Shown: piece by piece, positions 1-64,000 of the stretch
Layout: each line of letters starts with the position of its first letter
How positions within the stretch are numbered: the first letter of the stretch is position 1
Assembly (NCBI RefSeq): GCF_001316265.1
Contig: NZ_BBDN01000005.1
Coordinates: forward strand, 62,001 to 126,000
Origin: Vulcanisaeta sp. JCM 16159
GTDB taxonomy: Archaea; Thermoproteota; Thermoprotei; Thermoproteales; Thermocladiaceae
DNA: 64,000 bases
Direction of reading: 5' to 3'
Position numbers and translations under genes: made by a program
Notes under the pieces: model-generated
What the model saw: the letters and a program-made list of their open reading frames with translations, nothing else
The model's database searches: none
What the model was told of the DNA's origin: nothing

Positions 1-1583
1 GAGGAGTATGGACTCGCCGATAATTACTTCACGCCATACCTCTCAGAAAGCGCGCCAAACCACCTCTTCCTATACGCAGCCTATGCGCCGGTTATTGATG
101 ATTACGGCCCACCGCCCTATATACCGGTTCAGGAGAGCATATTCGCGGAGTTATGCCAATACCATGTGAGTTGGGGCTACTACGTAGATCCTAGGGAGTC
201 TCCGAGTCTCCTTGACATTAAGTACTTCTACGGCATTAGTAAGTACTCATCGTACATACAGACGTGGAGTGACTTCATAAGTGAGGTCATGAATGGTTCA
301 TTACCGGCGGTCTCCTGGGTTATGCCAGACCCATTAACAGACATGGGGCCTCCAGGCAATATACTGTATGGTGAGGCTTGGCTTCTTTACATAATAAATA
401 CGGTTGAGGAAAGCCCAATATGGAACTCGACAGTAATCTTCATAACATGGGATGAGTTCGGTGGTTATTATGACCATGTACTACCACCGATAATAAATGG
501 CAAACCACTGGGTGTTAGGGTCCCCCTGATAGTAATTTCGCCCTATGCCAAGGAGGATTATGTGTCGCATACCTTGTTAACCCACGCATCGCTTATAGCC
601 TTCATTGATTACAATTGGGGATTACCCGCTCTGAACAAGTACGTGCTGGAGAGCAACATACCCCTCGACTTCTTCTACTTCAACATGAGCAGGGAGCCAA
701 TAATATTTAGTCGGGGGTTCCCATTAATAGGCAATGTATATTTATTACCTAACGTATCCAATTACGAGGGCCTATCAACCCTATACCCATTAACACCACA
801 GATACCGCTCAATGAACTCCCATATCCAAGGTATGGCTATAGCAACATAACGTTGGCCGAACTAGGATCCACTGTTTATGTGAGTGAGGATTTTGCGTAC
901 GTACCTGTGGTCTACACGCCACTGGTCCTATGGTTAATCATAGCCCTAACCATAGACCTGGCATCAGTATCACTATTACCCATAGGCAAGGGAAAGCTTA
1001 GTGCGTTACACATTAAGGTGCTTGGTATTGTTAATGGTTCAGTAATCGCCGCATCAGTAACTGGCTTAATAACCCTGACAACGGGCTTCCTTAATTACCT
1101 GGGCAATACCGGTGAGGCACCACCACTGCTGCTGGGGTACCTCATTGGCCTGGTTATCTTTCCGATGATTGGCATGGCACTTACACGCATCAGGGTGGCG
1201 CATACATTATTGTTCTTCTTTCAATCATTGTCCCAGTACTTCTTTACCTACTGATCTATGTTCAAGCCATTCAGTCCTTCCTAATGAGTGATGAACCATT
1301 GTTGATTTACGGTCTATTATCCACGGCGCCCGCCATGTTAATCACACTATTGTTTCTTAGGAATTACATAAGTAGTGGTAGGTGGGTCAAGGGCTCTGTT
1401 TATGTACTTTCGCTGGGGCTGCTTTCATACTTATTAATACTAGTAATTGCCCTTGTATACATAAGGCTATACCAACCTGGATTATCAACACTGTTACTAC
1501 CAACGGAACTACTGGGTCTCTCGTTGGCTATTGCTTGGTTTGTAACGTTAACGAGAAGCCCTAGTCGGGGTGATTCTTCGTGA
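1..1583 (+). CDS. Phosphoesterase-family membrane-anchored hydrolase (5' end outside window, one frame change)
   Basis: The reading frame is open from base 1, so the N-terminus lies upstream of the window. The visible part resembles the phosphoesterase family of acid phosphatases and phospholipase C-like enzymes, with a TWDEFGGYYDH segment and a downstream RVPLIVISPYAK segment typical of that fold. The C-terminal part is hydrophobic with several membrane segments, suggesting a membrane-anchored catalytic domain facing outside. Near position 1200 the frame breaks: the first frame stops at 1254, while frame 3 continues without interruption as hydrophobic sequence (YIIVLLSIIVPVLL) to 1583, so this is one gene with an apparent missing base. 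The stop overlaps the start of the next gene, so it may belong to the same transcript. Confidence 0.72.
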
Positions 1584-2969
1584 GTTATGACATCGCCATA
1601 ATAGGCTCTGGCGTTGTTGGTTTGTTTATTGCCTATGAACTTGCGCATTATAGGATTAGGGTCCTCGTTATTGATAGGGAGGTTGAGCCAGGTTTTGGTG
1701 TTTCAAAGGGCCATGCTGGGGTTATCCACGTAGTCCAGCCACCATTTAACTCACTAAGGAGTAAACTGGCCGTTGAGGGCAATAGGCTATATGATGGCAT
1801 TGCCAAGAGGCTTCACGTCAGGATTAGAAGGTTAAGCGCATTATTAGTGGCTAGGAACTTAGGTCACCTAATTGTGCTACCCGCCGTGTGGTTAATCCTT
1901 AATCGCGTGTATGGCAAACACGGCTTTAGGGTTAGGATAATTGGGCCGCGGGAATTACGTAGACGTGAGCCTAATGTTAATGGCTTGGGTGCAGTGGAGG
2001 TTGAGGGCTACGGAGTAATAAACTCCTTCGAATTAGTATCGCAGTTATACAACTTCTGTAAATTAAATGGTGTTGACTTCGCCCTAGGCACAGAGGTTAG
2101 GGGTGCCAAGGTATTGGATGATGAAGTTGTCATACTCACGAACAGGGGTGAGTACAGGGCCAAGTACGTAGTTAACGCGGCGGGTCTTTACTCGGCGGAT
2201 GTTGCTAGGTTGTTTGGTGATGAGTATAGGCTTGAGTTTGGTAAGGGGGTTATGCTTGTTTTCTGGGGTGAACAGACAAGGAACATAATTGCACCGCTGC
2301 AATTAATACCTAACCCAAAGACCAAGGGCGGCGCGGTAATACCCACCGTATTTGGCACGACGATATGGGGACCAAGTCTGTCAATGGGTGAGAGGGTGAT
2401 AGGTCAGTTAATGAGGAGGACATCGATGTCTTAATTAAGAAGTTCAGTAACTTGTTGAGGAGTGAGGGTTTCACGCCGATAAAGGCCTATGCGGGAGTTA
2501 GGCCTATACCCGAGGGTGATGACTTCATAATAACATATAGCAAATTGAGCAGGCACGTAATTCACCTGGTGGGTATCGAATCGCCTGGATTAACGTCGGC
2601 GCCAGCAATAGTTGGGAGGGTCGTGGAGATGCTTAGGGAGGCAGGGGCCGTACTCATGCCTAAGGATGAGGTTAAGGAGGTTAACCCCATGGTAATGACC
2701 AGGGATATAGTGGAGGGGGGAGGACCCATTAATGATGAGCAAGGCGATGTCGTCTGTCCCTGCATGGGGGTTACCAGGGCGGATATTCGTGAAGCTATTA
2801 GGCGTGGTGCAAGGACACTAGACGGCGTGGCCTTCAGGACTGGGCTTGGCATGGGTATCTGCCAGGGCATGTGCCTCGCAAGGCCATCAAGGTTATTTCT
2901 GAGGAGCTTGGTATTGATCCGAGGGAGTTGACCAAGTCAGGTGGTGATTCATGGTTGGCTACACGGTAA
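1580..2969 (+). CDS. GlpA-like FAD-dependent glycerol-3-phosphate dehydrogenase with C-terminal BFD-type [2Fe-2S] domain (two frame changes)
   Basis: The N-terminus has a dinucleotide-binding motif (IIGSGVVGLFIAYELA) and a DAO-family body, as in anaerobic glycerol-3-phosphate dehydrogenase GlpA. The C-terminus carries a BFD-like iron-sulfur motif, CPCMG followed about 30 residues later by CQGMC. The protein likely oxidises glycerol-3-phosphate to dihydroxyacetone phosphate and passes electrons to a membrane acceptor. The frame changes near 2395 (after MGERV, continuing as SVNEEDIDVLIKKF) and near 2879 (after GMCLA, continuing as KAIKVISEELG and ending at 2969). Both behave as single missing bases. 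The end overlaps the next gene, indicating translational coupling. Substrate assignment is inferred from the family and the adjacent kinase. Confidence 0.75.
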
Positions 2970-3886
2970 TTGGCGCAGGGCTGGCCGGGCTCTCGTTGGC
3001 GACGGAGCTGCGCAGACTTGGTGTTGAGGTTGAGGACATCGAGTATAGAGATTACGTGGGCGGTATCCATGCCATGGTTCCCGAGGTTAGGGGTATAATT
3101 AGTGGCATGATTAGTGAGGTTGATGTTCGATTAGACACAACGGCCATTAGGGTCGGCGGTGCAATATACGTGGTTTGGAGGGGTGGGTATAGGAAACTCG
3201 ATAATAATGTATTAGTGGCTACAGGATTTAGGGTTATGACAATGCCCGAGCTGGGCATCTATGGAGAGAGGCCCGCGGGTATTTACCCACATCATGCAGT
3301 ACTGGACATGCTACACTACGACTTACTACCTGGTAAAAACGTGGTAATTTATGGGGATAACCAATATGCACTATCACTGGCTAGGGAATTAATGAGACGT
3401 GGTGTTACTGCCAGGGTCGTATCGCCGAGGAAACCAAGTGTTGAGGCTTACTCAGGTCCTGAGGTCATCATTGGCAGGGTTAAGTACGTTAGGGGCATGG
3501 GCAGGGTTGAGAAAATCCTAGTGGATAATGAATGGATTGCCGCGGATACCCTGGTAATATCCATGTTTAAGTCATTCAACCCATTCCCTGAGTTTAAGGC
3601 TGTTGGGCAGGCGGCCATTGAAACCTATGACCCAAGTATCGTTATTGAGAGCGGTAGGATAATGGCCAGGGAATTAGTAAGTAAATCCAATGACTTCATA
3701 GTAATAAATAGTGAATTACCCATTTACCCAGGTAATAAAGTCAGTAGGGATACACGTAGGGTGATAATCCCCTGCAGTGGATGTAGGGTCATGGTAAATG
3801 ATAGGGAGTACGTGATCAACGGTGATGCCGCCGTTATTGAATTACCAGATACTGATAAGGTTAGTATTAGGAGGGTGGTTTCATGA
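2951..3886 (+). CDS. FAD/NAD(P)-binding oxidoreductase, partner flavoprotein of the GlpA-like enzyme
   Basis: This 311-residue protein starts with a Rossmann FAD motif (VIGAGLAGLSLATEL) and has a second nucleotide-binding segment (VVIYGDNQYALSLA), the layout of pyridine nucleotide-disulfide-type flavoproteins. It resembles the smaller flavoprotein subunits that accompany GlpA, opine/octopine dehydrogenase A subunits and HcnB. It overlaps both neighbours (19 bases with the GlpA-like gene, 4 with the kinase). I infer that it forms a heteromeric dehydrogenase with the GlpA-like protein and relays electrons. A CSGC pair near the C-terminus (residues about 276-279) could bind metal or form a disulfide. 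The reading frame is intact. Confidence 0.6.
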   Translation: MVGYTVIGAGLAGLSLATELRRLGVEVEDIEYRDYVGGIHAMVPEVRGIISGMISEVDVRLDTTAIRVGGAIYVVWRGGYRKLDNNVLVATGFRVMTMPELGIYGERPAGIYPHHAVLDMLHYDLLPGKNVVIYGDNQYALSLARELMRRGVTARVVSPRKPSVEAYSGPEVIIGRVKYVRGMGRVEKILVDNEWIAADTLVISMFKSFNPFPEFKAVGQAAIETYDPSIVIESGRIMARELVSKSNDFIVINSELPIYPGNKVSRDTRRVIIPCSGCRVMVNDREYVINGDAAVIELPDTDKVSIRRVVS

Positions 3887-5287
3887 GTCTTGGGGTTATT
3901 GATGTCGGGACCACGAACGTTAAGCTAATAATATATGACGAGGAACTTAACCAGAGGTATTTGGAAACAATAAATGTGCCGATGCTATTCCCCAGCAGTT
4001 ACTACGTTGAGCAGGACGCAAATGCACTTAGGTCTGCCTTCAATCGTTTAATAAGCACAGCCAAAGAAAAGGGCGTTAAATACCTGGCATCTCAACCTAT
4101 AGGGCATCAATAATTACATGGGATAGGTCAGGTAACCCCCTCACTAACATAATCACGTGGCTCGATAGAAGGGGTCTTGAGATCATTAATAAATTTCCAT
4201 ACTCAATAATGAGACGTTTACCGCTGCTGGGCAGTATCCTAATACCCACATCGCCCGTCGCCCAAATACTATGGTTGTTAGGGAATAGGCAGGACCTGGC
4301 TCAACGTATAAGGAAAGGTGAGGCTTTCATTGGCACGTTAAGTTCATACTTGGCATACCTCGTTAGCAATAGGTACATTAACGATGCAAGTAATGAGGCG
4401 TTAACGGGTCTTTGGCATCCGGGTAATTTAAGGAGGATTGACCTGGTTTACGAGCTGTTGGGCATACCCAGAGAGGTGGGGCCTGAGGTTATTGATAATG
4501 TACATGAGCTTGGTGAGGTCGATGGAATGAAGGTTGGGGTTTTAATAGCGGACCAACAGGCGGCGATGGTTGGTGAGGGTTGCTTAAGTGTTGGTTGCGG
4601 TAAGGTTACGAATGGCACGGGCTCCTTCATGGACGCCGTTGTTGACGAATTTAAACTCGTTGGTGGCGGCTTATTACCGCTCCTCATACTTAAGTATGGT
4701 GGTAATGTGTTTTATGGAGTTGAGGGTTTCCTGCCTGCGACTGGTTCAGTAATTGATTGGTTAGTTAGGCTTGGGTTGTTATCTTCGCCGCAGGAGCTGG
4801 ATGGCTTGGCCCATGTCGATACCCAAGGTATAGTGGTTATACCAGCACTGGCTGGTGTTAATGTGCCGCCTAGGCCATGTGCAAGGGGCTTGATCGATGG
4901 CTTAACACTAAGCACTACTAGGGAGCCTTTGTGAGGGCCGTTATTGAAGGTATTGTTCAATTGATAGGCCTGATCTTCGATAAGATTAAGATTTATTCGA
5001 GGGCCAGTGTTGTTAGGGTTGATGGAGGCCTGTCAAGGAGCACCCTATTCCTTAGGTTATTGGCTACGGCGTTGGGTACCATCGTTGAGAGGCAGAGGGA
5101 TGTGGAGACTACGGCTAGGGGTGTTGCGGCGTTATTGAAGGTATTTAAGGGTGATTGGTCATTAAATGATGTTATTAAGGGCGTACATGTTAACGTGGAG
5201 TTACGAGTTGAACCTGGCGAGGAGAGGCTATCGTTAAATAGGGATATTGTTAAGAGGATTATTGAGGGGATGAGATGCAGAGCGTAA
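3883..5287 (+). CDS. FGGY-family carbohydrate kinase, probably glycerol kinase (two frame changes)
   Basis: The N-terminus reads GVIDVGTTNVKLIIYD, the phosphate-binding turn of the FGGY/hexokinase fold. It is followed by a YVEQDA segment and, after a frame change near 4105, an ITWLDRRG segment as in glycerol kinases. The second half has NGTGSFMD and, after another frame change near 4925, RVDGGLSRSTLFL, the adenosine-binding region. The second break occurs where TTRE should continue as AFVRAVIEG; restoring one G in a GG pair joins the frames. The expected length, about 468 residues, fits the family. Glycerol is the probable substrate because the operon also encodes glycerol-3-phosphate-type flavoproteins. 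Other FGGY substrates cannot be excluded. Confidence 0.75.
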
Positions 5288-8013: not shown

Positions 8014-8017
8014 CCCT

Positions 8018-10704: not shown

Positions 10705-11438
10705 ATGAACATAGTCAGGCTAAAGTATGCTCACTCAGACCCACTCTTCTATTACTCGGGGCTTAACCAATATGGGCCAGCAATAATGAGTCAATTAGGC
10801 TGCTTCTTGAGGGCAAGGCAAGCATCGGCTTTGTACCGCTAACGTACGCCGCACATAACTGTGATGTGTTATATGTCGTCCCTAGGTTCGCTATTTACAG
10901 TGACGGGCCAGTTATATCCGCTAGGTTATTCAGGGGCCTGGGTACTGGGTACGCGGCCGTTAGTGACACAAGCGTTAATGCAATGGCCGTGAGGAGACTA
11001 TTGGGTATTGACCTTAAGGTCATTGATGATCCATACAGGGCATTGAGGGATTTCGGCGCTGTGCTCGTTATTGGTGATGATGCCTTAAGAATGGTCGATG
11101 CTGGTTATCCGTATATACTGGACGTGGGTGAGCTATGGAGGGAGAGGGTAGGCCTGCCTCTGGTGTATGCGGTCATGGCCGTGACTAGGAATTATGATGA
11201 GGAGGAGTTGAACGTGGTTATAAATACCATCGAGAAATCTCTCTATCTCTTTGAGGAGGATCCAGAACCTGTTATTCAGTATACCGCGGGCAGGCTTGGT
11301 GTATCCAGGGAGTTAATTAGGCAGTACTTCAGGGCTATTAGGTATAGGGTCGATGATAGGGTTATTTCAGGGATTAATGAGGAACTGAGGACATTCGGTA
11401 TAAATAATTGCCTACGTTTCCTAGGCAATAAAACTTAA
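10705..11438 (+). CDS. mqnA: Chorismate dehydratase MqnA (one frame change)
   Basis: The first frame reads MNIVRLKYAHSDPLFYYSG and then breaks near 10780. The shifted frame continues as ESIRLLLEGKASIGFVPL and the rest of a periplasmic-binding-protein-like fold (RLFRGLGTGYAAV, then AVLVIGDDALRM), which is characteristic of MqnA. MqnA removes water from chorismate to start the futalosine pathway. The break behaves as one missing base. The gene lies 11 bases after mqnE and 24 bases before mqnD. Two ATG codons (10702 in a different frame, 10705 in frame) precede it; the in-frame one is chosen. Confidence 0.78.
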
Positions 11439-11462: not shown

Positions 11463-12262
11463 ATGGAGTTATTAATTGGGCATAGTCCTGACCCGGATGA
11501 CGCATTCATGTTCTACGCACTGAAGAAGGGCTTAATTAAAGCGTCATTCACGGTAAGGGAATTCTTAGTCGATATTGAAACGCTGAATAAGTTGGCGATA
11601 CATGGTAGGATTGACGTCACGGCAGTGAGCACGCATGCCATGGCATACATAGGAAGTAAATACTACATACTCAGGGTCGGCGCTTCCATGGGGCTTAGGT
11701 ACGGCCCCGTCGTCGTGGGTAATACCGCAAAGCCTGAGTTAGTCGCGGTACCAGGCACGTACACCACAGCAACACTATTGGTTAAGCTCGCAATACCCAA
11801 TGTAAAGACCGTAGAGGTACCTTTCGATAAGATCATGGACGCGGTAAAGGCCGGCGTAGTTGATGCAGGCGCATTAATACATGAGGGGCAAATAACTTAT
11901 GAGAGGTATGGGCTTAGGAAGATCATAGACCTAGGTGAGTGGTGGTATGAGGAGACGAAGCTGCCAACACCCCTTGGCCTGGACGTTGTTAAGGCCTCCC
12001 TGGGAATTGACGTGGCCAAGGCCGTTAAGGAGGCACTACTGGAGTCTATCGGGTACGCAATGATTCACAGGGAGGAGGCCCTGGCGTATGCATGGAATTC
12101 TCGAGGGGCCTAAACATGGTTGACACTGATAGGTTCGTTAAGATGTACGTGAATGAGTACACCATGGACATGGGGGTTGACGGCGAGAGGGCAATTAGGG
12201 TATTACTAGAAATGGGTCACGAAGATGGTTTACTGCCTGAACCCCAATTATTATTCGTCTAG
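11463..12262 (+). CDS. mqnD: 1,4-dihydroxy-6-naphthoate synthase MqnD (one frame change near the end)
   Basis: The N-terminus LLIGHSPDPDDAFMFYALK is the MqnD signature, followed by the IDVTAVSTHA and GALIHEGQITY segments. MqnD makes 1,4-dihydroxy-6-naphthoate from cyclic dehypoxanthinyl futalosine. The first frame stops at 12113, but the adjacent frame continues with RFVKMYVNEYTMDMG and ends at 12262, giving the complete C-terminus expected for the family. This is consistent with one missing base near 12097. It is the last gene of the mqn cluster and ends two bases before the convergent CoA transferase gene. Confidence 0.83.
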
Positions 12263-13378: not shown

Positions 13379-13767
13379 TTAGGGATTGCCATTGTTCCTC
13401 TGCCCGTTGTTCTTAACCATGAACCATGTCCCTATCCCAACTGCACACAGCTTCTTGTTTGCATCGTATACATGACCCTCAGCAACGGCCAAGTGCTTAC
13501 CAGCCTGATCACCCTGCCCTCCACGGTGAATGGCCCATTTATCAACGGCTCAAGGAAGTGAACCTTAAGCTCTGCAGTGTATTGATTAATACCATCGTTA
13601 ACGGTCATGACGGCGGTGCCAAGTACGGTATCGATTATGGTCATAACAACGCCACCGTGAACCATACCCCCTTGCCTAAGTATCTCACGCTTATAGGGAA
13701 AGACAGCCTTAACATAGCCGTCATTTACCTCCACGAACTCAAGGCCAATGAAGTTGAATAAGCTCAT
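13379..13767 (-). CDS. Hotdog-fold acyl-CoA thioesterase, PaaI/YdiI type (one frame change)
   Basis: The segment GGMVHGGVVMTIIDTVLG is the active-site helix region of PaaI-type hotdog thioesterases. The frame breaks near 13510. The shifted frame continues GDQAGKHLAVAEGHVYDANKK and GTWFMV, the normal last strands, and stops at 13379. It probably hydrolyses an aryl- or acyl-CoA thioester, perhaps together with the adjacent CoA transferase. The true start may be further upstream: see the small reading frame at 13739-13888, which has a promoter at leaderless distance and a plausible N-terminal helix. Confidence 0.75.
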
Positions 13768-15305: not shown

Positions 15306-16701
15306 ATGATGTCGAGTAAAACGCCCTTTGAACCACTTGATTGGTCGAACCCAACACCAGGCACTTAAAGCTATTATTCATATCCGGCGCGGGCTTCTTT
15401 GCCGATGCCTATGACCTATTCGCAATATCAATAGCCCTAGTATTCCTAAGGCAGGTCTGGTCGCTAACGGCTTCAGAAATAAGCCTAATATCATCAGCCG
15501 CATTGTTCGGTGCGGTAATAGGCCCCTTCATATTCGGTAGGATAGGCGACATATTTGGTAGGAAGTACATATACGGAGTGGAGGCCGCACTACTAGCAGC
15601 TGGTGCCATAGTCTCCGCCTTCTCAGTAAACCCAACAATGCTGTGGATAACGAGGTTCATACTTGGACTCGGAGTTGGCGGTGACTACCCAATAAGCGCC
15701 ACGCTAATGAGTGAATACGCGCCGGCCAGGAGCAGGGGCTTATTCATAGCTGGCGTCTTCTCAATGCAGGGCTGGGGCATAGTAACGGCTGCCCTATTGG
15801 GCCTGGGGCTATTAAATGCCAGGGTAAACCCAGACCTAGCCTGGAGGGTAATACTTGGTTTCGGCGCGGTGATGCCAGCACTTGTTATTTACTTTAGGCG
15901 TAGGGTCCATGAGACACCTAGATTTGAATACTTCGTTAAGGGCAACGTTGAAGCGCAAGGAGAGCCATTAGGGACGTGCTTAGGCAGGACGTGGAGATAA
16001 ACGGCATAAATAATTATAGCAATGGTTTTCGCGATAACTTCCTGAGATACCTACCGGTGGTACTGGGTACGGCAATACCCTGGTTCGCACTTGACGTGTT
16101 CTTCTACGGTATGAACATATTTGGCCCATTCGTAACCTCGGCAATGGGACTAGCGAAGAATCCACTGGCTGGTATTTATGTTCAGTTATACGTTGTGCTA
16201 GCCTTTCTAGTCCCTGGCTACTACGTGGCTGCCTTCCTAGTGGATAAAATGGGTAGGAAGTCCATGCAGATAATGGGATTCTCAATCGTAGCCGCCACAT
16301 ACCTAGCGGCCGCCCTCATGCTTAGGAGTGGTGCAATATATCCAGTAGCCATAATAGCGCTGTACGGCTTAGCCCAGTTCTTCACCAACGTTGGTCCTAA
16401 CGTAACGACGTTCATACTGCCAACCGAGGTGTTCCCAACGAGGTTCAGGACGACCGGTCACGGAATAGCCGCCGGCAGCGGTAAGTTGGGCGCAACACTC
16501 GCTGCACTATTCATTCCACTGCTCTTCCCAATAACAAGCAATTCATTGAACGCAACGGCTAAGTACATGGTGATGTCGAACCTATTACTCGTATTGGTTG
16601 CCGTGGCGATAATCGGTATAATATTCACAGCACTATTCATAAAGGAACCCAAGGGTAAGCCCCTGGAACTATCCTCGGGAGAACTAGGTATAAGTCAGTG
16701 A
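15306..16701 (+). CDS. MFS transporter of the phosphate:H+ symporter type (two frame changes)
   Basis: The ATG at 15306 opens MSSKTPFEPLDWSNP, and the frame shifts near 15345 to RHLKLLFISGAGFFADAYDLF. A second shift near 15970 joins the C-terminal six helices. Diagnostic segments are FGRIGDIFGRKY (the MFS loop 2-3 motif), GVGGDYPISATLMSEYA and TTGHGIAAGSGKLGA, which match the Pho84-like phosphate:proton symporter group. Twelve membrane segments are expected. Both breaks behave as missing bases. Other organic-anion substrates are possible within this MFS branch, so phosphate is a family-based inference. Confidence 0.75.
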
Positions 16702-17163: not shown

Positions 17164-17550
17164 TGGCGAGTATGTCTATCGCTCAATGGATCGTGAGGAG
17201 AGGGAATTAATTATTTCAAGAATTAGAGATATACTTAGGGAGTACGGTATCTCCCTTGGGATATTATTCGGTAGTTTCGTAGACTTAATGAGTTTAGGGA
17301 CATAGACATTGCGGTTTACGGGAAGAATCTTGACCTGAATGAGTTATTAAGCCTTGGAACAAGGCTTGAGGAGGTACTCGGCATGCCTGTGGATGTCGTG
17401 CCACTAATCAATGTCGACCCTGAATTTAGGCTTTCGATAATGGAGCACGGCCTCATAATTCTTGAGGATGTTGATGGCCTATACGAGGCATTGATGAGTG
17501 AGGCACTTGATGAGTTATACCTGGTAATGCGTGATGATTCAATACAGTAG
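17153..17550 (+). CDS. mntA: MNT-type minimal nucleotidyltransferase antitoxin (one frame change)
   Basis: The first frame reads MEFSGEYVYRSMDREERE up to ILFGS and breaks near 17277. One added C in the GTTTCG context restores GSFRRLNEFRDIDIAVYG, the G-S-x(n)-D-x-D polymerase-beta active site of MNT proteins. The C-terminus reads LPVDVVPLINVDPEF-like sequence and the frame ends at a TAG at 17548-17550. It overlaps the HEPN gene, forming a toxin-antitoxin pair. Because the frame is broken in this sequence, whether the antitoxin is functional is not settled. Confidence 0.72.
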
Positions 17551-24818: not shown

Positions 24819-25555
24819 TTAGGGCTTCACCGTGTAGTAAACCCTCTTCTTATCCTTACCCCTACTCTCCGACTTCAGGAAGACAATCTCCCCAATCTCC
24901 CTAGTATTGGCCACGTGTGGTCCACCGTCAGCCTGAACATCGATGCCCTCGATCTCCACAATCCTCCACTCCTCACCAGGCGGTGGCTCCCTCTCGGCCA
25001 ACTTAACAATGCCCGGTATCTTCATCGCCTCCTCCTTCCTGAGGAAGTAAATCTTCACTGGAATACCTCTCTTAACGACATCGTTGGCCTCCGCAATCAA
25101 GTCCTGAAATGCCTTCCTAAGCGCATCACCGCTCAGGGTTAGGTTGTAATCATCCCTGGCATACTCAGGGGTTATGTCGCCGCCGGTCACGAGGGCATTG
25201 TACTTCTTATAGGCCAGCGCGGCTATTATGTGCGTTGCCGTGTGAAGCTCATTAACCTATACCTCCTATCCCAATCGATTATGCCGTGAATAGCATCACC
25301 AGCCTTGAATCTGGGCTCTCTATCGAGGATGTGCACCGCATCCTCACCCTCCTTAACCACCTCCCTGACCACGTACTCCTCACCCTGCCAAACAAGCTTG
25401 CCAGTGTCATTGGCAACCCCACCACTCCTTGGGTGGAAAAGCGTTTGGTCGAGCCAGACCCTATTACCATCTATCCTAACCACAGTCGCATCAAATTCCC
25501 TCCTGTATGAGTCCCACCAGTAGAGGAATTTGGTTGGCATTGCTTTTAAACCCAT
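24819..25555 (-). CDS. Alanyl-tRNA editing protein AlaX (one frame change)
   Basis: The N-terminal barrel domain includes DQTLFHPRSGGVANDTG. The frame breaks near 25245, where adding one G gives RLMRLHTATHIIAALAY, the zinc-binding H-x3-H motif. The C-terminal part contains DVQADGGPHVANTREIG, the second metal motif. The protein deacylates mischarged Ser- or Gly-tRNA(Ala). At about 245 residues it fits AlaX-M/L. The ATG at 25555 is taken as the start, but an internal ATG at 25540 is possible. It is codirectional with the M20 peptidase and aminotransferase upstream. Confidence 0.82.
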
Positions 25556-42869: not shown

Positions 42870-45127
<2,258 letters not shown>

Positions 45128-46060: not shown

Positions 46061-47154
46061 ATGCCGAGTGTCAGTAGGATTTGGAGATTAATTGATGAAT
46101 TACGTAGGTCGCAGATAGAGTTGGCCGTTATTGTTCCAGGACCTAACTTTAGGTATTTGGTTGGTTCTAATATCGAGACCTTCGAGAGGTTCGGCGCATT
46201 GATTGTTTGTTCAGGCAATGGTACATACGCTTTAATATTGCCAAGGCTTGATGAGGGAAGGGCCAAGGCCACTGGCTTGCCGTACATTGTTTATGGGGAT
46301 GAGGAGGGCCCATTAAGCGTCATTAAGACGTTCATTAATGATAACTGCGGCGCTGTTGGTAGGGTTGGTTTTGAGGGCAGGGCCGCACTCAACTACTTGT
46401 GGGTTATACGTGGGGCAATTGGTGAATTTAGTGATTATTCCATTGATGGTTTATTAGCATCAATGAGGATAAGTAAGGATAATAATGAGCTAAATAATAT
46501 TGAGCGGGCGGTCAGAGCTATTGAGGATGGCATTAAGGCGGCGCGTGAATCTATCAGGCCCGGAATGACCGAGCTTGATGTTGCTAAGGTGATTAGTGAT
46601 GCCATTAGTAATGCAGGTGCTGAGCCTAGAGATGTGCTTGTTCAGTCGGGCCCTAACTCGGCCATACCTCATTGGATGCCTTCCCGTAGGAGGATTGAGG
46701 TTGGTGATGTGGTTGTCATTGACGTTACCGCAACCTACAATGACTACTATGGCGATTTAACGAGGACATTCGTAATCGGCAACCCGCCAGGCAATTTCTG
46801 GCACATTTACAACCTAGTTAGGAAAGCCCATGACGAGCTATAGCCGGGGTTAGGGAGGGCGTTACGGGTGCTTATGTTGATTCGATAGCCAGGAGGGTCA
46901 TAACCGAGGGTGGTTATGGGGAGTACTTCATACATAGGACTGGTCATGGGATTGGGCTTGAGGTTCATGAGGAACCATTCATAAGCCAGTCCTATGATAA
47001 GGCATTACCGAGGGGTAGCGCATTCACTATTGAGCCTGGCATATACCTGCCCAGCAGGTTTGGTGTTAGGCTTGAGAGTAACGTTGTGATTAAACTTGAC
47101 GGTGGGGTTGAGGTTCTCGATAGGTACTGGCCAGAGGTTATTGTCAGGGTCTAG
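46061..47154 (+). CDS. M24-family Xaa-Pro aminopeptidase/dipeptidase (one frame change)
   Basis: The N-terminal creatinase-like domain (residues about 1-120) precedes the pita-bread catalytic domain. Metal ligands are seen in VVVIDVTATYNDYYGDLTR (two Asp), in the second frame in RTGHGIGLEVHEEP (His), FTIEPGIY (Glu) and VRLESNVV (Glu). The first frame stops at 46843 after KAHDEL; the next frame continues AIAGVREGVTGAYVDSIA and ends at 47154, so one base is missing. It releases amino acids from the N-terminus of Xaa-Pro peptides. It starts a forward cluster with the histidine phosphatase. Confidence 0.85.
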
Positions 47155-47191: not shown

Positions 47192-47813
47192 GTGATATTA
47201 TACCTTGTTAGGCATGGTGAGGCGCAATTGAATGCACTTGGAATACTTCATTCGAGGAATTACGATGATAATCCATTAACGGACAGGGGTAAGCTCGAAG
47301 CAGCCGCAGCCGCGTTGTTCCTACATAGAATGGGTGCTGGCGGCCCTGTATTCACCTCGCCATTACTGCGCGCACGCCAGACTGCCAACTGTATTAACCG
47401 TAATTACAGGGTTGATGATAGTTGAGGGAGATTGACATGGGTGAGTGGAACTTAAGAGGATAAGTGAGGTTCCCTTCGATGACTACAGGAGGGACCCGGT
47501 TAAGTACCATCCACCTGGTGGTGAGTCTATAGAGTCTGTGGTTAATAGGGTCATGGACTTCCTAAACTTCGTCGAGGGCATTAATGAGAGGTCCGTGATT
47601 GCCGTAAGCCATTGGCACCCCATTGCTACAATCGCGGCCCTGATCATGGGATTACCCCTGAGTAATATCTATAAGTTGCGTATTAGTACGGGGTCTATAA
47701 CGGCCATTGACTTGGATAATGATGACGTATTATTCCTAAACCTAAGCCCATTAAGGGTGTTGAGAAGCCTTGGCTTTAGCGATAATGAGTTAATTAAGGA
47801 GTGCGGTGAGTAG
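47192..47813 (+). CDS. Histidine phosphatase (phosphoglycerate mutase-like, two frame changes)
   Basis: Start GTG 47192 opens MILYLVRHGEAQLN, the RHG motif with the catalytic His. PVFTSPLLRARQTA follows. Breaks near 47420 and 47455 bring in REIDMGEWNLK, with the conserved acidic residue, and RISEVPFDDYRRDP. The second catalytic His is in AVSHWHPIATIAAL. Both breaks behave as missing bases. Such proteins act as cofactor-dependent phosphoglycerate mutases or as broad phosphatases; the small size (about 208 residues) favours a phosphatase or a CobC/alpha-ribazole type. It follows the M24 peptidase closely. Confidence 0.8.
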
Positions 47814-52160: not shown

Positions 52161-53515
52161 ATGTCCCAGATAAGGATTGAGGAGGTGAAGCCAACCTTCG
52201 AGAGGGTTGGACTACATAGTCACATCAAGGGTTTAGGCGTTAGGGATGGTAAGGTGCAGTTCTCGGCCGATGGCTTCGTTGGCCAGGTCGAGGCTAGGGA
52301 AGCGGCTTACTACGTTGTTAAGATGATTAAGGCCGGTAAGTTTGGTGGTAAGGGCGTATTAATTGTCGGTCCACCGGGCACCGGTAAGACTGCGCTCGCC
52401 ATAGGCATTGCCAGGGAGCTTGGTCCTGACACGCCGTTTGTGCAGATAAGCGCTGCTGAGGTCTATAGTATGGAGGTTAAGAAGACGGAATTCCTGACGA
52501 GGGCCCTTAGGAGCGCCATTGGTGTTAGGATTAGGGAGTGGCGTAGGGTGTACGAGGGTGTTGTCAAGAGCATCGATATTCAATACGGTAAACACCCATA
52601 CAACCCATACGCCCAAATACCTAGGAGTGCCGCCATAACCCTGGCCACGAAGGACGAGGAGAAGAGACTTAGGGTCCTGCGGAGATCGCTGAGCAGTTAA
52701 TCGAGCTTGGTGTTGAGGAGGGTGATGTTATTTGGATTGATGAGGAGACTGGTAGGGTGTTTGTTCAGGGTAAGGGTGAGGGTGGTGAGACTTACGATAT
52801 TTACGTCAAGAAGAAGATTGAGGTTCCTAAGGGCCCCGTATATAAGGAGAAGGAGATCACGAGGTTCTTCACGCTCAATGACTTGGACATATACCAGGCT
52901 AGGCAGCAGGGATTGCTCAGCGCCATGATATTTGGCTTTGCGGCTGAGGAACGAGAAATCCCCAATGAGGTTAGGAAGGCCGTTGATGAGTTCGTGTTAA
53001 AGTTGATAAATGATGGGAAGGGTGAGCTTGTGCCTGGTGTACTGTTTATCGATGATGTCCACATGCTCGATATTGAGACCTGGGCCTACTTGAGTAGGGC
53101 CATGGAGAGTGAGTTAAGTCCAATACTCATCCTAGCCACCAATAGGGGTATAACGAAGATTAGGGGCACGGATGTCGAGTCGCCGCATGGTGTTCCTCTT
53201 GACATGCTTGATAGGCTGATCATAATTAGGACCAAGCCTTACACGGCTGATGAAGTTAGGGAGATCATAAAGATTAGGGCGAGGGAGGAGAAGGTTTCGT
53301 TAGCCAATGATGCACTTGAAGAGCTGACGAAGGTAGGTACAGAGGAGAGCCTTAGGTACGCAATACAGTTGTTGGCGCCTGCCCAGTTGAGGGCTCAGGA
53401 GGTTGGTCACAAGGAAATTACCAAGGAGGATGTTGAGTATGTTAAGAAGTTGTTCCTAAGTGTTAGGGAGAGTGTTCAGTATGTTAAGGAGTACGAGAAT
53501 TACTTCCTACGTTAG
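52161..53515 (+). CDS. TIP49/RuvB-like AAA+ helicase (one frame change)
   Basis: Walker A is GPPGTGKTALAIGIA near residue 72. The frame breaks near 52680 (KRLRV, continuing in the next frame as IAEQLIELGVEEGDVIWID). Walker B reads LFIDDVHMLDIE, and the sensor is LILATNRGI. This matches the archaeal homologue of eukaryotic RuvBL1/2, about 451 residues in total. The Walker B has Asp-Asp where Asp-Glu is usual. The eukaryotic proteins act in box C/D snoRNP assembly and chromatin remodelling. A TATA-like TTTAAAGG lies 28-35 bases before the ATG at 52161. Confidence 0.9.
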
Positions 53516-54136: not shown

Positions 54137-54849
54137 ATGTCGAGGTTTATAAGAGACTTTTGGGGAAGAATATTATCGCCACTCTACGTGGGGGAGAGGG
54201 AGTTCCTGAGTAGGTTGGTGGTTCATATTGAGCTTAGCCAGAGGGCCATGGCAATACTTGAGGATATGGTGTTGAGCGCCGTTGAGAATAACAGCGTTAG
54301 TAAGACCAAGGTTTCCGAGGGAATGAGGGAAATAGCGGCTCTTGAGCGTGAGGGTGATGAAATCGTTAGGCAAATAAACGATTCAGTACTCAGAGCGCTG
54401 TTCCAATAACTACGGCATCAATTATGGATACAATACTGAATAAATCGGATGATATACTTGATGGGATCCATGTTATATCGAGGGAGTTAAGACGTACGTA
54501 TTACCTATGCAATACTGAGCCCGTTAGGAAGTTCCTAGGTGAGGAATTCCTGGAAATGCTTAGAATAGGTAAGGAGGCCTTGAGGATGCTCCTTGAAATG
54601 ATAAATAATCTCGATAAAAAGAGCTTTAGTGATATAAGGGTCATGGTCATGGGCATACAGAAGCTTGAGGAGGAGGTTGACGACATAAAGGACTCAGTCC
54701 TGGATAAGTTGTATTCCGATGCAAGGGAATTAACCTACGTTGAGTTCATGAGCAGCATGAGCCTAATATTCGGCATTGATGACGTACTCGACTCAATAAA
54801 GGATATAGCCTATATGCTATTAACATTAATTAGTACGTATGGCGCCTAA
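54137..54849 (+). CDS. DUF47/PhoU-like phosphate transport accessory protein (one frame change)
   Basis: The protein is all helical: SRFIRDFWGRILSPLYVGER, then GMREIAALEREGDEIVRQIN, the PhoU-like motif region. The frame breaks near 54402 (one G missing restores RGAVPITTASIM) and continues with KSDDILDGIHVISREL and FGIDDVLDSIKDIA. About 238 residues, normal for DUF47. Such proteins often pair with Pit-type phosphate transporters; none is adjacent, but an MFS phosphate-type transporter lies at 15306-16701. It is cotranscribed with the HAD gene, only five bases downstream. Confidence 0.82.
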
Positions 54850-54853: not shown

Positions 54854-55564
54854 GTGATTTGTGTAAATGCCGTATTATTTGACTATGATGATACGTTAAT
54901 AGACGCCAGGGAGGCAAGGGATAACGCAAGGCGTGCAGTTGTTGATTTTTTTGTCGTTAGTGAGTGGCCTTAATAAATCACATGTACTTGATACAGTCAT
55001 GAATATTGAGAGACAGATGGAGGTTATTGGTCAATTTAATAGGAGGGTTTGGTTTAGGGAAGTAGCCAGTGTATTGGGGATTAGGCTAAGTGATCATGAA
55101 GTTAATGAACTTGTGAAAACGTACTGGGACTCATGGCGTTCAGGGAGTAAGTTATTTTCCGACGTCCTACCGACCCTGGCTAAATTAAGGAGGTGCGGCT
55201 TAAGGCTTGGGATAATTACAAATACTGATGGCGAGCTGGGCTTAAGAGAGATAGAATACGCAAGGATGGTGTTTACGAATTATTTGACCTAGTAATAATT
55301 GCTGGAGATGATACGAAGCATGTCAAGCCACACCCAGAACCATTTATGAAGGCTTTGCAAGTCCTCGATATGCGGGGTAACGAAGTCATTTATATTGGTG
55401 ATAATGTGAGCATTGACGTACCTGGAGCAAAGGCAGCAGGCATGCGTGTGGGTATTATTAATAGATATAACGCAGTGGATCCTGGGATTAACAATTATAA
55501 AGATGTAAGGCCGGATTTCATAATTCAGTCACTAACGGAATTGCTTCAATTAATTGGGTGCTAA
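54854..55564 (+). CDS. HAD-superfamily hydrolase (two frame changes)
   Basis: Motif I is VLFDYDDTLIDA with the nucleophile Asp. The frame breaks in a run of seven T at 54945-54951, where one T fewer (or two more) joins LSLVSGLNKSHVLDT. The cap domain follows. Motif II is LGIITNTDGE. A second break near 55270 (one missing G) leads to VYELFDLVIIAGDDTKHVKPHPEPF (motif III Lys) and VIYIGDNVSIDVPGAKAAG (motif IV). It is a phosphatase of the phosphoglycolate or 2-haloacid dehalogenase-like group. Substrate unknown. Confidence 0.8.
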
Positions 55565-55682: not shown

Positions 55683-56065
55683 TTACTCAACAAGGATCTT
55701 TGTCAGCTTATCCTTCAATTTCTCTATTTCAAGCAATATTAACCCTAGGTTTGGATCCGGCTTTGCTATTGCAGTTAGGATTAAGTCCTTGCTTATTGGA
55801 GCCACTAATAACGTATTCCTGGTATATTGGGATACACTTATTATTGATTCACCAAGCCTAGCTCTGCGCCTAGCCTATCCATTGTGCTTCTGGCTATTGC
55901 AACCATTGCACTAACTACCTTTGCATTAAATTCTCCACCAACCTTAAAGGCCACTGGTAATCCATCACGCCTAACAACCAATGCACCAACAATATCCGGA
56001 AATACCCTATTCATGAATTCCTCCAGCGCATCCACAACCTCCTTGCCTACACTGGAACTCATCAT
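55683..56065 (-). CDS. Roadblock/LC7-domain protein (one frame change)
   Basis: The N-terminal part DALEEFMNRVFPDIVGALVV followed by RRDGLPVAFKV is the Roadblock/LC7 alpha-beta fold used by MglB-like and Ragulator-like proteins. The first frame stops at 55841. One G added to a GG pair gives LGESIISVSQYTRNTLLVAP and continues to a stop at 55683, completing the sheet and last helix (about 127 residues). In archaea such proteins bind small GTPases or act as structural dimers; no GTPase gene is adjacent. It is convergent with the HAD gene. Confidence 0.8.
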
Positions 56066-56162: not shown

Positions 56163-58262
56163 ATGCCAACGAGGGAGCACCTAGACATCGTAATGGGGAA
56201 TTCCCAGTACATAGATGATGTTAAAATAGATGATATGGCTTACCTTCATGTAATTAGGTCACCATATGCACGCGCAAAGGTCTTAAAGATTGATTCACCA
56301 AGCAACAAATCTTTACTTTTTCTAACCGCTAAATCTATTGGAAAATTATTAATGCCCGCAATGCCAACATCCAATGCCAGGATTGTCAGAATGCCCGTGT
56401 TACCTAACGATACCGTGAACTTCATCGGTCAACCAGTGGCGGCCGTGGTCACGGAATCCAGGTACTCACTTGAGGATGTGGTTGATGAGATATCTATCGA
56501 GTACGAGCCTCTGAAACCCGTGGTTACCATAGATGATGCGATGAAGAACGAGGAGATAATACACCCGGAAATAGGCACGAATATTTCCCTGGACACCGTG
56601 TTAGAGGGCGGTAACCTTAACGTGTTTAAGGACGCGGACGTGGTTATTGAGAGGGAAATCGAGCAAGCCAGGCTAGTTGCCAACCCAATGGAGCCCAAGG
56701 GATGCATTGCTTACTATAATGGCGATAAACTCCTTGTTTACGCATCGACACAATCAACATTTAGGGTCAGGTCGGACCTGGCGGAGGTTCTTGGATTGCC
56801 CATTGATAAGATCGTTGTTAAGGCGCCTAAAAATATCGGAGGAGCCTTCGGTAATAAGACGCCGGCTTACCCCGAGTACGTACTTACTGCAATAGCTTCA
56901 ATGAAGTTAAGAAGACCTGTTAAGTGGATCGAGACAAGGACCGAGCATCTAAACAATGCGACCCAGGGCAGGGGAGTTAAGTCGAGGATGAGACTCTACG
57001 CTAAGAGAGATGGGACAATACTGGGTATTGAGGGTGAGGTCATCGTTAACTTAGGTGCTTATAACTTCACGATAAATGCCTCATCGCCAATATTCATAGC
57101 TAACCTATCCACGGGACCCTATAAAATGCTCGCTGCCAGGGTCAGGGCGATTGGCGTCTTCACAAACACACCGCCCTCAGGTCCATACCGAGCGCGGGCA
57201 GGCCCGAGGCCGCGTTAATTCATGAGACCCTAATTGATGACCTAGCCGATGAACTCGGTATGGACTGTCGAGGTTAGGAGGAGGAATATAATCAAGGACG
57301 GTGAGACCTACAAGTCACCTCTAGGTCTTATGATTGATCCCGCCAATTATCAATCAATTCTCGAGGATGCGGCGAAGCGTTATTACGAGTTAAGGAGTAG
57401 GTATCCAAATAAGGGCGTTTCCATCGTTGTTTTTGCTCTATACGTGAGCACGTTTGGAGGTGAGGGTGTTAAAGCATGATTGGCAATGGTAAGTTGAGGC
57501 TCATAATAGGATCTCGACCGCAGGGTCATGCCCATGTATCAGCATTTACCAAATACGCCTCCGAGGTCTTTGGGATTCCTGAGGAACTTATTGAGGTTGT
57601 GCCTGGTGATACGGAGACCCTTAATTACGGTGTTGGCACATTCGGTAGTAGGAGCGCTACCGTGGTTGCGGCCGCTATTACTGAATTGGCGGAGAGGGTG
57701 GCGTCGAGATTATCAACAATGGGTCTGTCGTTGATTGATGCCATTAAGTCTAGGGGCATTATTATTGAGGAAGAGGTTGATTATAAACCAAGCATTGCCA
57801 TACTTGCGCCAGGCGCTCACGTAGCGGTTGTCGATTTCGACCTAGAGACTGATGGCCAATGTAATTGATTACTACGCTGCCTATAACGTCGGTAAGCCAC
57901 TTCTTGAGGAGGAGATCGAGGCACAGCTTCATGGTGGCGTACTCCAGGGAATTGCACAGGTACTTTGGGAAGGCGCAATATATGGTGATGATGGAACACC
58001 ACTTCATACGACGCTTGCTGATTACGGATTGCCAAGTCCTTCTGACGTGACGTATAAGGTATTGACTAAGGGTTTGAATACGCCATCAATACTGCCCGGC
58101 GGACTTCGCGGTATTGGTGAGGCTGGTACCACGGGCGCGTTGGCAAGCGCATTCCTGGCCCTTGAGAAGGCGATAAGGGCTAAGACAGGTATTAGGATCA
58201 AGCTTAATAGAACGCCGGTGACGCCATCATACCTGCACAATCTAATTAATAATCAATTTTAA
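56163..58262 (+). CDS. Molybdopterin-dependent hydroxylase large subunit (xanthine dehydrogenase/aldehyde oxidase family, several frame changes)
   Basis: The N-terminal domain starts MPTREHLDIVMGNSQYIDDV at ATG 56163. Moco-binding motifs follow: GGAFGNKTPAYPEY, then after a break near 57195 GPYRGAGRPEAAL (one missing G), then RPQGHAHVSAF, and near the end the catalytic Glu in RGIGEAGTTGALAS. Breaks near 57195, 57265, 57475 and 57850 are all explained by one or two missing bases. The RGAGRPEA sequence is of the xanthine/aldehyde type; the AYXCSFR loop of form I CO dehydrogenase is absent. No medium (FAD) or small (Fe-S) subunit gene is in the window. Confidence 0.8.
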
Positions 58263-60222: not shown

Positions 60223-63049
60223 TTAAGGTTCGGAGGTGGAGGAAATGGCCCCTATAGACTTATTGTAAAATGGCCACCAATTCCACTTACCAAGCAGAAC
60301 TATTATAGCCGGCACGAGTAGCGGCCTGACTATGAATGAATCGATGATTACCGATGAAGCCACCGCGAGGGCTACTTGCTTGAGTATGTAGATGCTTGAT
60401 AGTGCCAGGGAGGCAAAGGCCATGGCCAGCACCAAGGCTGCGCCCGTTACCACGGGCCCCGTAACCTCAACGGCCCTGACTATAGCGTCCTTATCACTTA
60501 ATCCATTGCTAATCTCCTCCCTGAATCTGCTGACTATGAATAGGTCATAGTCAGTACCAACACTCAGCAATAGTGATATTAAAATCACCGGCATTAACCA
60601 ATAGGTCTGTATCCCCATTAATTCCTGAAATACAAATATCGTTAGCGCCAAGGACCAGGTGATGCTCATGAGGACCGTGGCTACGAGTCTTAGTGGTATC
60701 ATTACGGATCTCATATAAATTGTGAGTATAACAATGTTTATGGCTATCATTACGTAGATTATGAGACCGTAATACTCACGCTCAAAGCCAAGCACGAAGT
60801 AATACTTATCCGCAGGTGACCCTCCAATCAATACCTTGGACCCGTACTCCCTAGCCACCTCATTAGCCACCTCCCTTAGGCTTAGGTATATTGGTATAAG
60901 TTTGTCGGATAATGATTGTTGGTTAACCGTGGCGGTTATTATATACATGTCTGACCCATTGTATGATAGGGCTGCGTTTATTACATAGTCCTGTCCCTTA
61001 ATGGCATTGAGCAACGCCAAAGCGGCTGACTTATTGCCATAAATCACCAAGTATGCTGTTGAATAATCATAATTCCTGAAATAATTGATTAATAGGCTAA
61101 GCCCAACCTTAGCCGGCGTATTAGGCATGACTTGCACGGGGTCTGTGGTTATCCTAATGTTTAGCAATAAGTATGTGAGGGCTAAGGCAGTGATTGCCAG
61201 GAATATGGTCACGACTAACCTCGGCCTATCAACGGCGAACTTGGCCATCCTTGAGAGAAAGGCTGTCCTCAACTCAACGGACTTTGCCTCAATCCCATGG
61301 GCCATAGAACGCCATCGCCAAGTAACCTCATGAATTCGGGCAGTATTACCGCGGTTGCCATTACCGTGAATGCCACGGCAATTATGAATCCAATGCCGAT
61401 GTCCTGTATGTAGCCATACCTCGATATTGCGAAGCTGCCAAGCCCAAGTCCAACAACCGACGCACTGGCTAGTATTGTTGGTCTAATGCGGGATAAAACA
61501 ATACTCAATGCTTTATTCTTATCACGTTCCCTGATCCTCTCCTCTAAGTACCTACTAAGCATGAGCATGCTGTAATCGACACCTATGCCAAATATTACTG
61601 GGGCTATCATGTAAACGGTTAGGTAGTAAAGCTTGAAGTGTATTGCCCAGTTGTAGAGTAGCCCGAGGGATGCTAGGTATGTTAGGCCAAGTATTGTCAA
61701 TGACATGACCGGGCCCACCAGGGTACCGAGCATTGCAATCATTGTTACGAACACGAGGCTGCCGTGGTCTTATCGATGATATTTACATCGTTTGTGACCA
61801 TCTCCTGAAGTTCGTATAGAATAACATCAGTGCTCACTGGGTATACCCAGTCCTTCTTTGTTAGTAGGTCATAAATTGTGTCCTCGTAATTGCTCGGTAG
61901 TGAGATGAAGGCTACGGTGTACGTATCATTTAGAAACTTCTGGGTTAGGTTGTCAGGTAAATCGAGAATGCTTGGCGGCGGATGCTCCTGCATTAATGCG
62001 TTGGTTACGCTACTTCTTATTTCATTCAATACCGTATTTACTACCGATGTATCATTGCTGCATGTTAATTGATAGATGTATGGCGTCAATATGGTGGATG
62101 TGTCGTTTATATACTCTTGTATTAGTAAGAGCCTTAGTAGTTTCATGTCCGTGTTTGGCCCTATTAATACGGCAATCCTAAGGTCCGTATAATTAATATC
62201 ATTATTAAGCAGCACGTCGTATGCATACCCAGTTATATTGCCTATGTTAATTCCTGGATACTCCTGCTGAATTATGTACTCGTAATTCATTAGTAGGATA
62301 CCCGTTATATTTTCTGAAACTAATTTATACGGCGATGGCCCATTGCCAATATTACTAATTAATTGAGTAAGTGTTCTATTGGCTAGTTCATTTATGTAAT
62401 TGTCATAACGCCCGTACTTAATTTCGTAGTCTTTTGTCGTTAAATAAAATAATGTAGTTAATGATGCGTTTGGGTATTTTTCCAGGTAATAGTCCTCAAT
62501 TTCATAATAAAGGAGCTGCGCATAATCTATTGTTGCGTTAAACTTGCCGCTAATATCGTTACTAAGGTTATAAACCATGGAATAATACTCTCTATTCAGC
62601 CGTATTATTGATGAGCATTCATTATTTAATGACCAATAGAGACTCCATACACTGCCGGTTTCGTTATTAATTATTTCGGCAGTGACGTTATTTATTGTTT
62701 CATTATATATCGTGTATGCGTCATTATATACCGTTAATAAATCAGTAATTGTTATGTTTGGTGCATCAACCTCCCTAATAATACTATTTACGTAATTTAA
62801 GTGGTCTTTAATGCCCATTGTACTGTTGCTGTTCAACTTGACTACAACAACCAGTGTTGTCTCGTTGGAAGTACCTATGTACTTATTAACTAGGTTGTCG
62901 ACAATCACCGGCTCTACGTTATCCGGCATTAACTGCATCTCATCGTATGTTAGTACATTAAATACACGGAATGAGTAATGGGCTAGGTAAATCATAAGAA
63001 CCAGCCAGGCCATAATTATTAATATTGATAGGCGACTCCTCGATATCAT
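60223..63049 (-). CDS. RND-superfamily MMPL-type exporter (two frame changes)
   Basis: The N-terminal membrane helix (SILIIMAWLVLMIYLAHYSF) is followed by a large extracytoplasmic loop of about 370 residues. The frame breaks near 61750 and resumes as VFVTMIAMLGTLVGPVMSL with the six-helix bundle, including APVIFGIGVDYSMLMLSRYLEE (helix 4 with the conserved Asp). A second break near 61305 brings the second half with VLLSVGTDYDLFIVSRFREE. Both behave as missing bases. It exports lipids or hydrophobic compounds using the proton gradient. It is divergent from the ABC ATPase, with overlapping promoters between 63050 and 63089. Confidence 0.85.
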
Positions 63050-63959: not shown

Positions 63960-63979
63960 GGAATTAGGTTTAATTAATT

Positions 63980-64000
63980 ATGCCTAGTGTTTTTATCGAT
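63980..64000 (+). CDS. Start of a further gene, cut off by the window end
   Basis: ATG at 63980 opens MPSVFID and runs off the window. By position it is the likely permease or surface partner of the ABC ATPase, but nothing more can be seen. Confidence 0.35.

What the first reader, a model, noticed from the sequence alone, without database searches (positions are those of the whole stretch)
1..64000. Window-wide pattern of single-base frame breaks in about 30 genes, nearly all behaving as one missing base
Seen directly: frames change inside sdhB, ppdK, hppA, trm1, fibrillarin, TIP49, mqnA, mqnD, alaX and many others. Tracking the reading frame across each break shows the downstream part shifted as if one base were absent. 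Where the family motif is known, the missing base restores a short homopolymer, for example GG to GGG in sdhB, GG to GGG in the Roadblock gene and TTT to TTTT in ppdK. Several genes are essential and single copy. The simplest explanation is homopolymer contraction in the assembly. The less likely alternatives, widespread programmed frameshifting or genome decay, would be remarkable.
Basis: partly seen in the sequence, partly recalled or inferred. Interest (0 to 1): 0.7.

Follow-up and report, generated by a model that had tools for sequence, protein, structure and literature searches.

The report
Sequencing-error frameshifts in Vulcanisaeta draft
The many broken genes in this stretch of a hot-spring archaeon's genome are very probably sequencing mistakes, mostly single lost G or C letters of a kind described for one older sequencing machine, and not a biological feature.

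Summary
The breaks are in the sequence, but almost certainly artefacts. The window lies in an unnamed 2.25 Mb Vulcanisaeta draft rated 63% complete. Against two complete same-genus genomes, 54.5 kb of the window holds 33 one-base and 3 two-base losses against 6 one-base gains; the complete genomes show 1-3 one-base losses and 1-6 gains each. By this strict test 26 of 58 reference frames are hit, 23 by a base loss in a credible gene.

The decisive result: the genome's one detected 23S rRNA gene lacks 8 bases that five relatives have, with no gains. Recoding cannot explain that. Third-codon-position bias persists downstream of breaks.

'Homopolymer contraction' is only partly right. Losses are mostly of G or C from runs of 2-3, favouring GGGC and GGCT; longer runs and A/T runs are not preferred. 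This resembles published Ion Torrent PGM high-frequency indels (PMC3623719). Three low-completeness relatives are JCM drafts, and a sister draft was made on that machine (PMC9872577).

Seven coding breaks, including fibrillarin, are shared with a close relative that is also such a draft; they cannot be settled singly without reads.

The parts
2389..2399 (+). one-base loss in FAD oxidoreductase (DAO/Fer2_BFD) gene
4080..4090 (+). one-base loss in FGGY carbohydrate kinase gene (shared with G002)
4920..4930 (+). second one-base loss in the FGGY kinase gene
10761..10771 (+). one-base loss in VitK2_biosynth gene (first of the mqnA/mqnD pair)
12085..12095 (+). one-base loss in the second VitK2_biosynth gene
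13498..13508 (-). one-base loss in 4HBT thioesterase gene (shared with G004)
13756..13766 (-). two-base loss in the same 4HBT gene
15356..15366 (+). one-base loss in MFS/sugar transporter gene
15946..15956 (+). second one-base loss in the same transporter gene
17278..17288 (+). one-base loss in Polbeta nucleotidyltransferase gene
25242..25252 (-). one-base loss in alaX-like gene (tRNA_SAD)
25718..25728 (-). one-base loss in M20 peptidase gene (shared with G004)
27790..27800 (-). one-base loss in aminotransferase gene, near its start; same loss in G002 and G004
31603..31613 (-). one-base loss in sdhB-like gene (Fer2_3), in a GG/GGG run
31760..31770 (-). second one-base loss in the sdhB-like gene, not in a run; shared with G002
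34536..34546 (-). one-base loss in trm1 (TRM)
35396..35406 (-). one-base loss in HTH_3 gene
36346..36356 (-). one-base loss in fibrillarin, found as two adjacent pieces and no other copy; same break in G002, open in the six other genomes searched
41831..41841 (-). one-base loss in ppdK (PPDK_N)
41888..41898 (-). second one-base loss in ppdK
42165..42175 (-). third one-base loss in ppdK
44485..44495 (-). one-base loss in hppA (H_PPase)
46831..46841 (+). one-base loss in M24 peptidase gene
47416..47453 (+). two one-base losses in histidine phosphatase gene (first shared with G002; G004 and G008 carry other losses close by)
52670..52680 (+). one-base loss in TIP49 gene; G002 and G004 are broken at other places, G008 open
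54387..54397 (+). one-base loss in PhoU_div gene
55230..55240 (+). one-base loss in HAD hydrolase gene
55849..55859 (-). one-base loss in Roadblock/LC7-like gene (lenient test only; G002 lacks the base too)
57186..57269 (+). one-base and two-base losses in molybdopterin-dependent dehydrogenase gene (the two-base one shared with G002)
57469..57853 (+). a further one-base and a further two-base loss in the same dehydrogenase gene
61281..61291 (-). one-base loss in MMPL-family gene (shared with G002)

Best explanation
The frame breaks are uncorrected sequencing errors in a draft of a Vulcanisaeta strain, most likely made on an Ion Torrent PGM. In that platform's high-frequency indel error, a large share of reads lose or gain one base at the same place; the strand-asymmetric class is mainly loss of one G or C from a run of two or three. 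The consensus inherits the loss. Shown here: excess of losses over gains, 23S rRNA hit, G/C context, persisting third-position bias after breaks, mostly open frames in complete relatives, same excess of losses in named JCM drafts. Inferred: that the window's unnamed draft was made on that platform, and that reads of the true DNA would carry the missing bases.
For: Losses far exceed gains: 33 against 6 one-base events in the window; 101 against 10 on 139.9 kb of the contig, 9-16 per 20 kb over its first 160 kb (99 of the 101). Complete genomes tested the same way show 1-3 one-base losses and 1-6 gains. The one detected 23S gene has 8 losses and no gains, against 0, 1 and 2 losses in complete G007, G010 and G003; at 6 of the 8 all five relatives have the same letter. 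Third codon positions hold 0.74 of substitutions after a break, 0.68 before and 0.72 in unbroken genes. C/G account for 44 of the 53 losses where both references agree, and 75 of 101 lie in runs of 2-3 by best placement. PMC3623719 (abstract and passages) reports PGM high-frequency indels about 1 per 1000-2000 bp, strand-asymmetric ones 82% in runs of two to three and dominated by C and G deletions. G002, G004 and G008, with 36, 40 and 18 one-base losses, are JCM drafts, and the sister draft BBBK01 is Ion Torrent PGM (PMC9872577, whole text). Completeness is 63% against 99% for G003, G007 and G010.
Against: The window's own record is unnamed, so its platform is not confirmed, and no reads were available. 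The 16S count (1 loss) is no higher than in complete G007 or G010 (1 each), and the divergent complete G011 shows 6 losses in each rRNA gene. The substitution rate against G002 is somewhat higher after breaks (5.44 per 100) than before (3.85) or in unbroken genes (4.40), though the third-position share is not lower. 9 of 36 sites are shared with G002, more than independent random error would give. In PMC3623719 only 29% of the full set of high-frequency indels lay in homopolymers and A/T insertions were common, which fits less well than the strand-asymmetric subset. The GGGC/GGCT preference is not named in the passages I read.
Confidence: 0.95

Rival explanations
1. Same class of artefact, different machine: classic homopolymer contraction in an unpolished long-read assembly.
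For: Losses dominate over gains, and completeness is low in a genome of full size with few contigs.
Against: Long runs and A/T runs are not preferred: none of the 53 agreed losses is in an A/T run of three or more, at most 5 of the other 48 could be, and no run exceeds 4. Three relatives with the same excess of losses are JCM drafts; a sister of that series is documented as Ion Torrent.
Confidence: 0.12
2. A subset of the breaks, the seven coding ones shared with G002, are genuine inherited frameshifts: real gene loss or recoding in the common ancestor of the two strains.
For: Shared at the same place: 4085, 27795, 31765, 36351, 47421, 57264, 61286. Fibrillarin is broken at the same place in both and has no second copy.
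Against: G002 is a draft with the same error profile: 36 one-base losses in 64.7 kb. 27795 is also shared with the more distant G004 while G007, G003 and G008 have the base. Fibrillarin and sdhB are core genes (recalled).
Confidence: 0.06
3. Widespread programmed frameshifting that restores the frame during translation.
For: Third-position bias continues in the shifted frame.
Against: The 23S rRNA gene carries the same kind of loss. Complete congeners have the genes mostly in one frame. The context preference, GGGC/GGCT counted on both strands together, covers only a minority of sites and I found no common slippery site.
Confidence: 0.01
4. Genome decay with many young pseudogenes.
For: 26 of 58 reference frames are hit by the strict test, and the substitution rate is slightly higher after breaks (5.44 against 4.40 per 100 in unbroken genes).
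Against: The third-position share of substitutions is not lower after breaks. Fibrillarin and the one detected 23S gene are hit. One-base losses dominate with a G/C context rather than mixed lesions.
Confidence: 0.01

Closest known systems
Ion Torrent PGM high-frequency indel errors (Bragg et al. 2013, PMC3623719; abstract and passages read)
   Same: About one per 1-2 kb, mostly single bases; the strand-asymmetric class is mostly C/G losses in runs of two or three; said to yield frame-shifts in assembly.
   Different: That paper also reports many A/T insertions and only 29% of the full set in homopolymers; the draft here shows few gains (10 of 111 one-base events). Strand asymmetry cannot be tested without reads.
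Vulcanisaeta souniana JCM 11219 draft (BBBK01, Ion Torrent PGM; PMC9872577 whole text) and the V. souniana IMG assembly flagged for excess split proteins (PMC11237513 passages)
   Same: Same genus. The IMG assembly had 148 of 264 protein sets attributed to confident fission, which the authors say could indicate assembly fragmentation.
   Different: Whether the IMG assembly equals BBBK01, and how the window's strain relates to V. souniana, was not established; the window is about 80% identical to G010, a single-contig 2.4 Mb genome that may be V. souniana (not verified).

Membership tests
Ion Torrent PGM high-frequency indel artefact | Rate near one per 1000-2000 bases | tested here: met
   101 one-base losses in 139.9 kb, 0.72 per kb
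Ion Torrent PGM high-frequency indel artefact | C/G losses in runs of two or three (strand-asymmetric class) | tested here: met
   44 of 53 agreed letters C/G; 75 of 101 in runs of 2-3 by best placement, 61 of them C/G
Ion Torrent PGM high-frequency indel artefact | A/T insertions among the commonest errors (full set) | tested here: not met
   only 10 one-base gains against 101 losses
Ion Torrent PGM high-frequency indel artefact | Strand asymmetry and run-to-run irreproducibility in reads | not testable with these tools
   no reads held
Ion Torrent PGM high-frequency indel artefact | Genome sequenced on that platform | tested here: inconclusive
   own record unnamed; three relatives with the same symptoms are JCM drafts and sister BBBK01 is Ion Torrent PGM
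Classic homopolymer contraction | Loss rate rises with run length, A/T runs included | tested here: not met
   agreed losses only: A/T triplets 0 of 1374, A/T quintuplets 0 of 41; GGG 22 of 2268, GGGG 2 of 239, GGGGG 0 of 13; at most 5 of 48 other losses could lie in an A/T run of three
Programmed frameshifting | Confined to coding genes | tested here: not met
   8 losses in 23S
Programmed frameshifting | Site conserved in relatives | tested here: not met
   complete relatives have the base (by construction of the strict test); shared with drafts G002 at 9 of 36, G004 3 of 35, G008 1 of 33
Pseudogenisation | Relaxed selection after the break | tested here: not met
   third-position share 0.74 after, 0.68 before, 0.72 unbroken; overall rate 5.44, 3.85 and 4.40 per 100

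The most novel reading that the evidence does not exclude
One or more of the seven coding breaks shared by the window's strain and JCM 11216, above all the fibrillarin break, is a true inherited frameshift that the cell tolerates by recoding on the ribosome, while the rest of the pattern is error.
Probability: 0.03. Interest if true: 0.75.

Novelty: not a real feature. Interest (0 to 1): 0.08.

Why it matters
As biology it does not matter. As a warning it does: genes of this draft and of sister JCM drafts read as split, absent or pseudogenes, their completeness is probably understated, and even rRNA genes carry errors. The +3 expansion of G/C runs seen in two relatives is worse in one respect: within genes it keeps the frame and so passes frameshift-based quality checks while adding a residue.

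Tried and rejected
Modified-base motif: an EM motif search on 127 losses pooled from four drafts gave an AG-S-CCT-like pattern. Per-context rates on the window's contig reach only about 2-3%, so a fully modified recognition site is not indicated; I dropped this.

Hairpins or polymerase stalling: longest hairpin arms and folding energy at 101 loss sites do not exceed those at 600 random sites or 600 context-matched sites by any significant margin.

Sharing test: does sharing follow identical flanks or ancestry? With G002, 9 of 23 same-flank and 0 of 13 different-flank sites are shared at flanks of 4 and 5; 8 of 22 and 1 of 14 at flank 6; 7 of 19 and 2 of 17 at flank 7. With G004 at flank 5 it is 1 of 7 and 2 of 28, so two of its three shared sites have different flanks. 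The numbers do not decide between context and descent.

Literature: one search (Vulcanisaeta, JCM, Ion PGM) held nothing. Search 54, on Ion Torrent drafts with many frameshifted proteins, showed no paper on these strains in its listing (10 of 51 listed). One search gave the error paper; searches gave the Vulcanisaeta papers; of PMC5069417 I saw one passage listing accessions, of PMC3961732 one passage.

Rows dropped before counts: blast pieces under 300 bases; gaps within 15 bases of an alignment end, with flanks under 60% identity, or with another gap within 12 bases; 14 of 70 reference frames without a good match in the window. In one search the per-context rates use only the 53 of 101 losses where both references agree.
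Full report
What the window is. It is bases 62001-126000 of contig 5 of an unnamed 2.249 Mb genome in 28 contigs, rated 63% complete. Thirty relatives were searched; 11 are of the same genus. G003 and G007 are single-contig genomes rated 99% complete. From memory, their lengths fit V. moutnovskia 768-28 and V. distributa DSM 14429.

Seventy G007 open frames conserved in G003 served as references; 56 could be located in the window and 33 of them have at least one frame change: 51 breaks, 39 of net -1 and 5 of net -2. The same procedure applied to complete G003 gave 19 breaks in 13 of 69 frames, 2 of them -1. Requiring the same event against both complete genomes leaves 33 one-base losses, 3 two-base losses and 6 one-base gains in 54.5 kb. 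G007 and G003, each tested against two others, show 1-3 one-base losses, up to 2 two-base losses and 1-6 one-base gains. Thirty one-base losses, 3 two-base losses and 2 gains of the window are coding and hit 26 of 58 reference frames; 23 of these are credible genes hit by a loss. On contig 5 as a whole the picture is the same: 101 one-base losses, 8 two-base losses and 10 one-base gains in 139.9 kb.

It is very probably not biology. First, the genome's one detected 23S rRNA gene lacks 8 bases that all five compared Vulcanisaeta genomes have, and no base is gained; at 6 of the 8 the five agree on the letter. Complete G007, G010 and G003 lack 0, 1 and 2; draft G004 lacks 4. The divergent complete genome G011 lacks 6, with 60 unique substitutions. 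The 16S gene lacks 1, which is no more than G007 and G010 (1 each), so the argument rests on 23S. Losses in rRNA cannot be translational recoding. Second, substitutions relative to G002 keep their third-codon-position excess after breaks: 0.74, against 0.68 before and 0.72 in unbroken genes; the overall rate is somewhat higher after breaks, 5.44 against 3.85 and 4.40 per 100. Third, core genes are hit: fibrillarin is found in two adjacent pieces with no other copy, and TIP49 is split in the window's genome, in G002 and in G004 at different places but open in G008.

What kind of error. The usual picture of homopolymer contraction does not fit. By best placement the missing base lies in a run of 1 (20 sites), 2 (37), 3 (38) or 4 (6); 78 of the 101 are C/G and 23 A/T. 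Among the 53 losses where both references agree, A/T triplets are hit in 0 of 1374 places, GGG in 22 of 2268, GGGC in 12 of 486, GGCT in 13 of 600 and GGCC in 0 of 209; at most 5 of the remaining 48 losses could lie in an A/T run of three. Four of the 8 losses in 23S are also at GGGC. Bragg et al. (PMC3623719; abstract and passages) describe high-frequency indels of the Ion Torrent PGM: about one per 1000-2000 bases, the strand-asymmetric class 82% in runs of two to three and dominated by loss of C and G, and they say these regions yield frame-shifts in assembly. The same paper puts only 29% of the full set in homopolymers and names A/T insertions as common, which fits less well. The sister draft of V. 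souniana (BBBK01) was made on that machine (PMC9872577, whole text), and a 2014 announcement of other JCM drafts names Ion Torrent PGM with Newbler 2.8 (PMC3961732, passage). That the window's draft and the three JCM drafts compared here come from the same platform is inference.

What remains open. Of 36 window loss sites, 9 are shared with G002 (7 coding), 3 of 35 with G004 and 1 of 33 with G008. At flanks of 4 or 5 bases, sharing with G002 occurs only where flanks are identical (9 of 23 against 0 of 13), but at flanks of 6 and 7 it is 8 of 22 against 1 of 14 and 7 of 19 against 2 of 17, and two of the three sites shared with G004 have different flanks. Context-driven error and common descent both fit, so the shared sites are not settled one by one. 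Two shared sites (9505, 11444) are outside the reference genes and may be real variation.

Known or new. That a Vulcanisaeta souniana assembly shows an excess of split proteins was already noted, with assembly fragmentation suggested as the cause (PMC11237513, passages). I file the finding as not a real feature.

Noticed in passing
L014-L017 (G002, JCM 11216), L030-L033 (G008, JCM 11217), L040, L049: Roughly half to two thirds of G or C runs of four appear as runs of exactly seven (G002: 84 runs of 4, 168 of 7 in 80 kb; G008: 84 and 91 in 65 kb; 0 G/C runs of 7 in the window and in the G003, G004 and G007 stretches). It also occurs in rRNA, so it looks like an artefact, but in genes it keeps the frame; why +3 is not explained.
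   Followed up: partly
L020:9542-9896 (G007), matching window 41440-41794: The single-contig genome G007 carries a 355-base inversion inside ppdK that splits the gene; turned back, an 893-residue frame is open. No perfect inverted repeat of 9 bases or more was found within 60 bases of the ends. Misassembly or a real inversion.
   Followed up: partly
window 47405-47450; G004 and G008 counterparts: In the histidine phosphatase gene all four drafts (window, G002, G004, G008) carry losses close together, at different places except for the window and G002, while G003 and G007 are open: a hot spot of error, or something real.
   Followed up: no
window 6791-10217 against G008 (L033): This stretch is 93-94% identical to G008 while its neighbours are 80-88%, suggesting recent exchange of a few kb between species.
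   Followed up: no
window 17.8-22.6 kb: This block lies inverted relative to its neighbours in G003 and about 100 kb away in G007, so it has moved within the genus.
   Followed up: no
G002, G008 against G007: JCM 11216 and JCM 11217 are labelled V. distributa but differ from G007 (by recalled length the V. distributa type strain) at about 171 and 152 substitutions per kb over this region; the window and JCM 11216 differ at 46 per kb. The labels may be wrong at species level.
   Followed up: no
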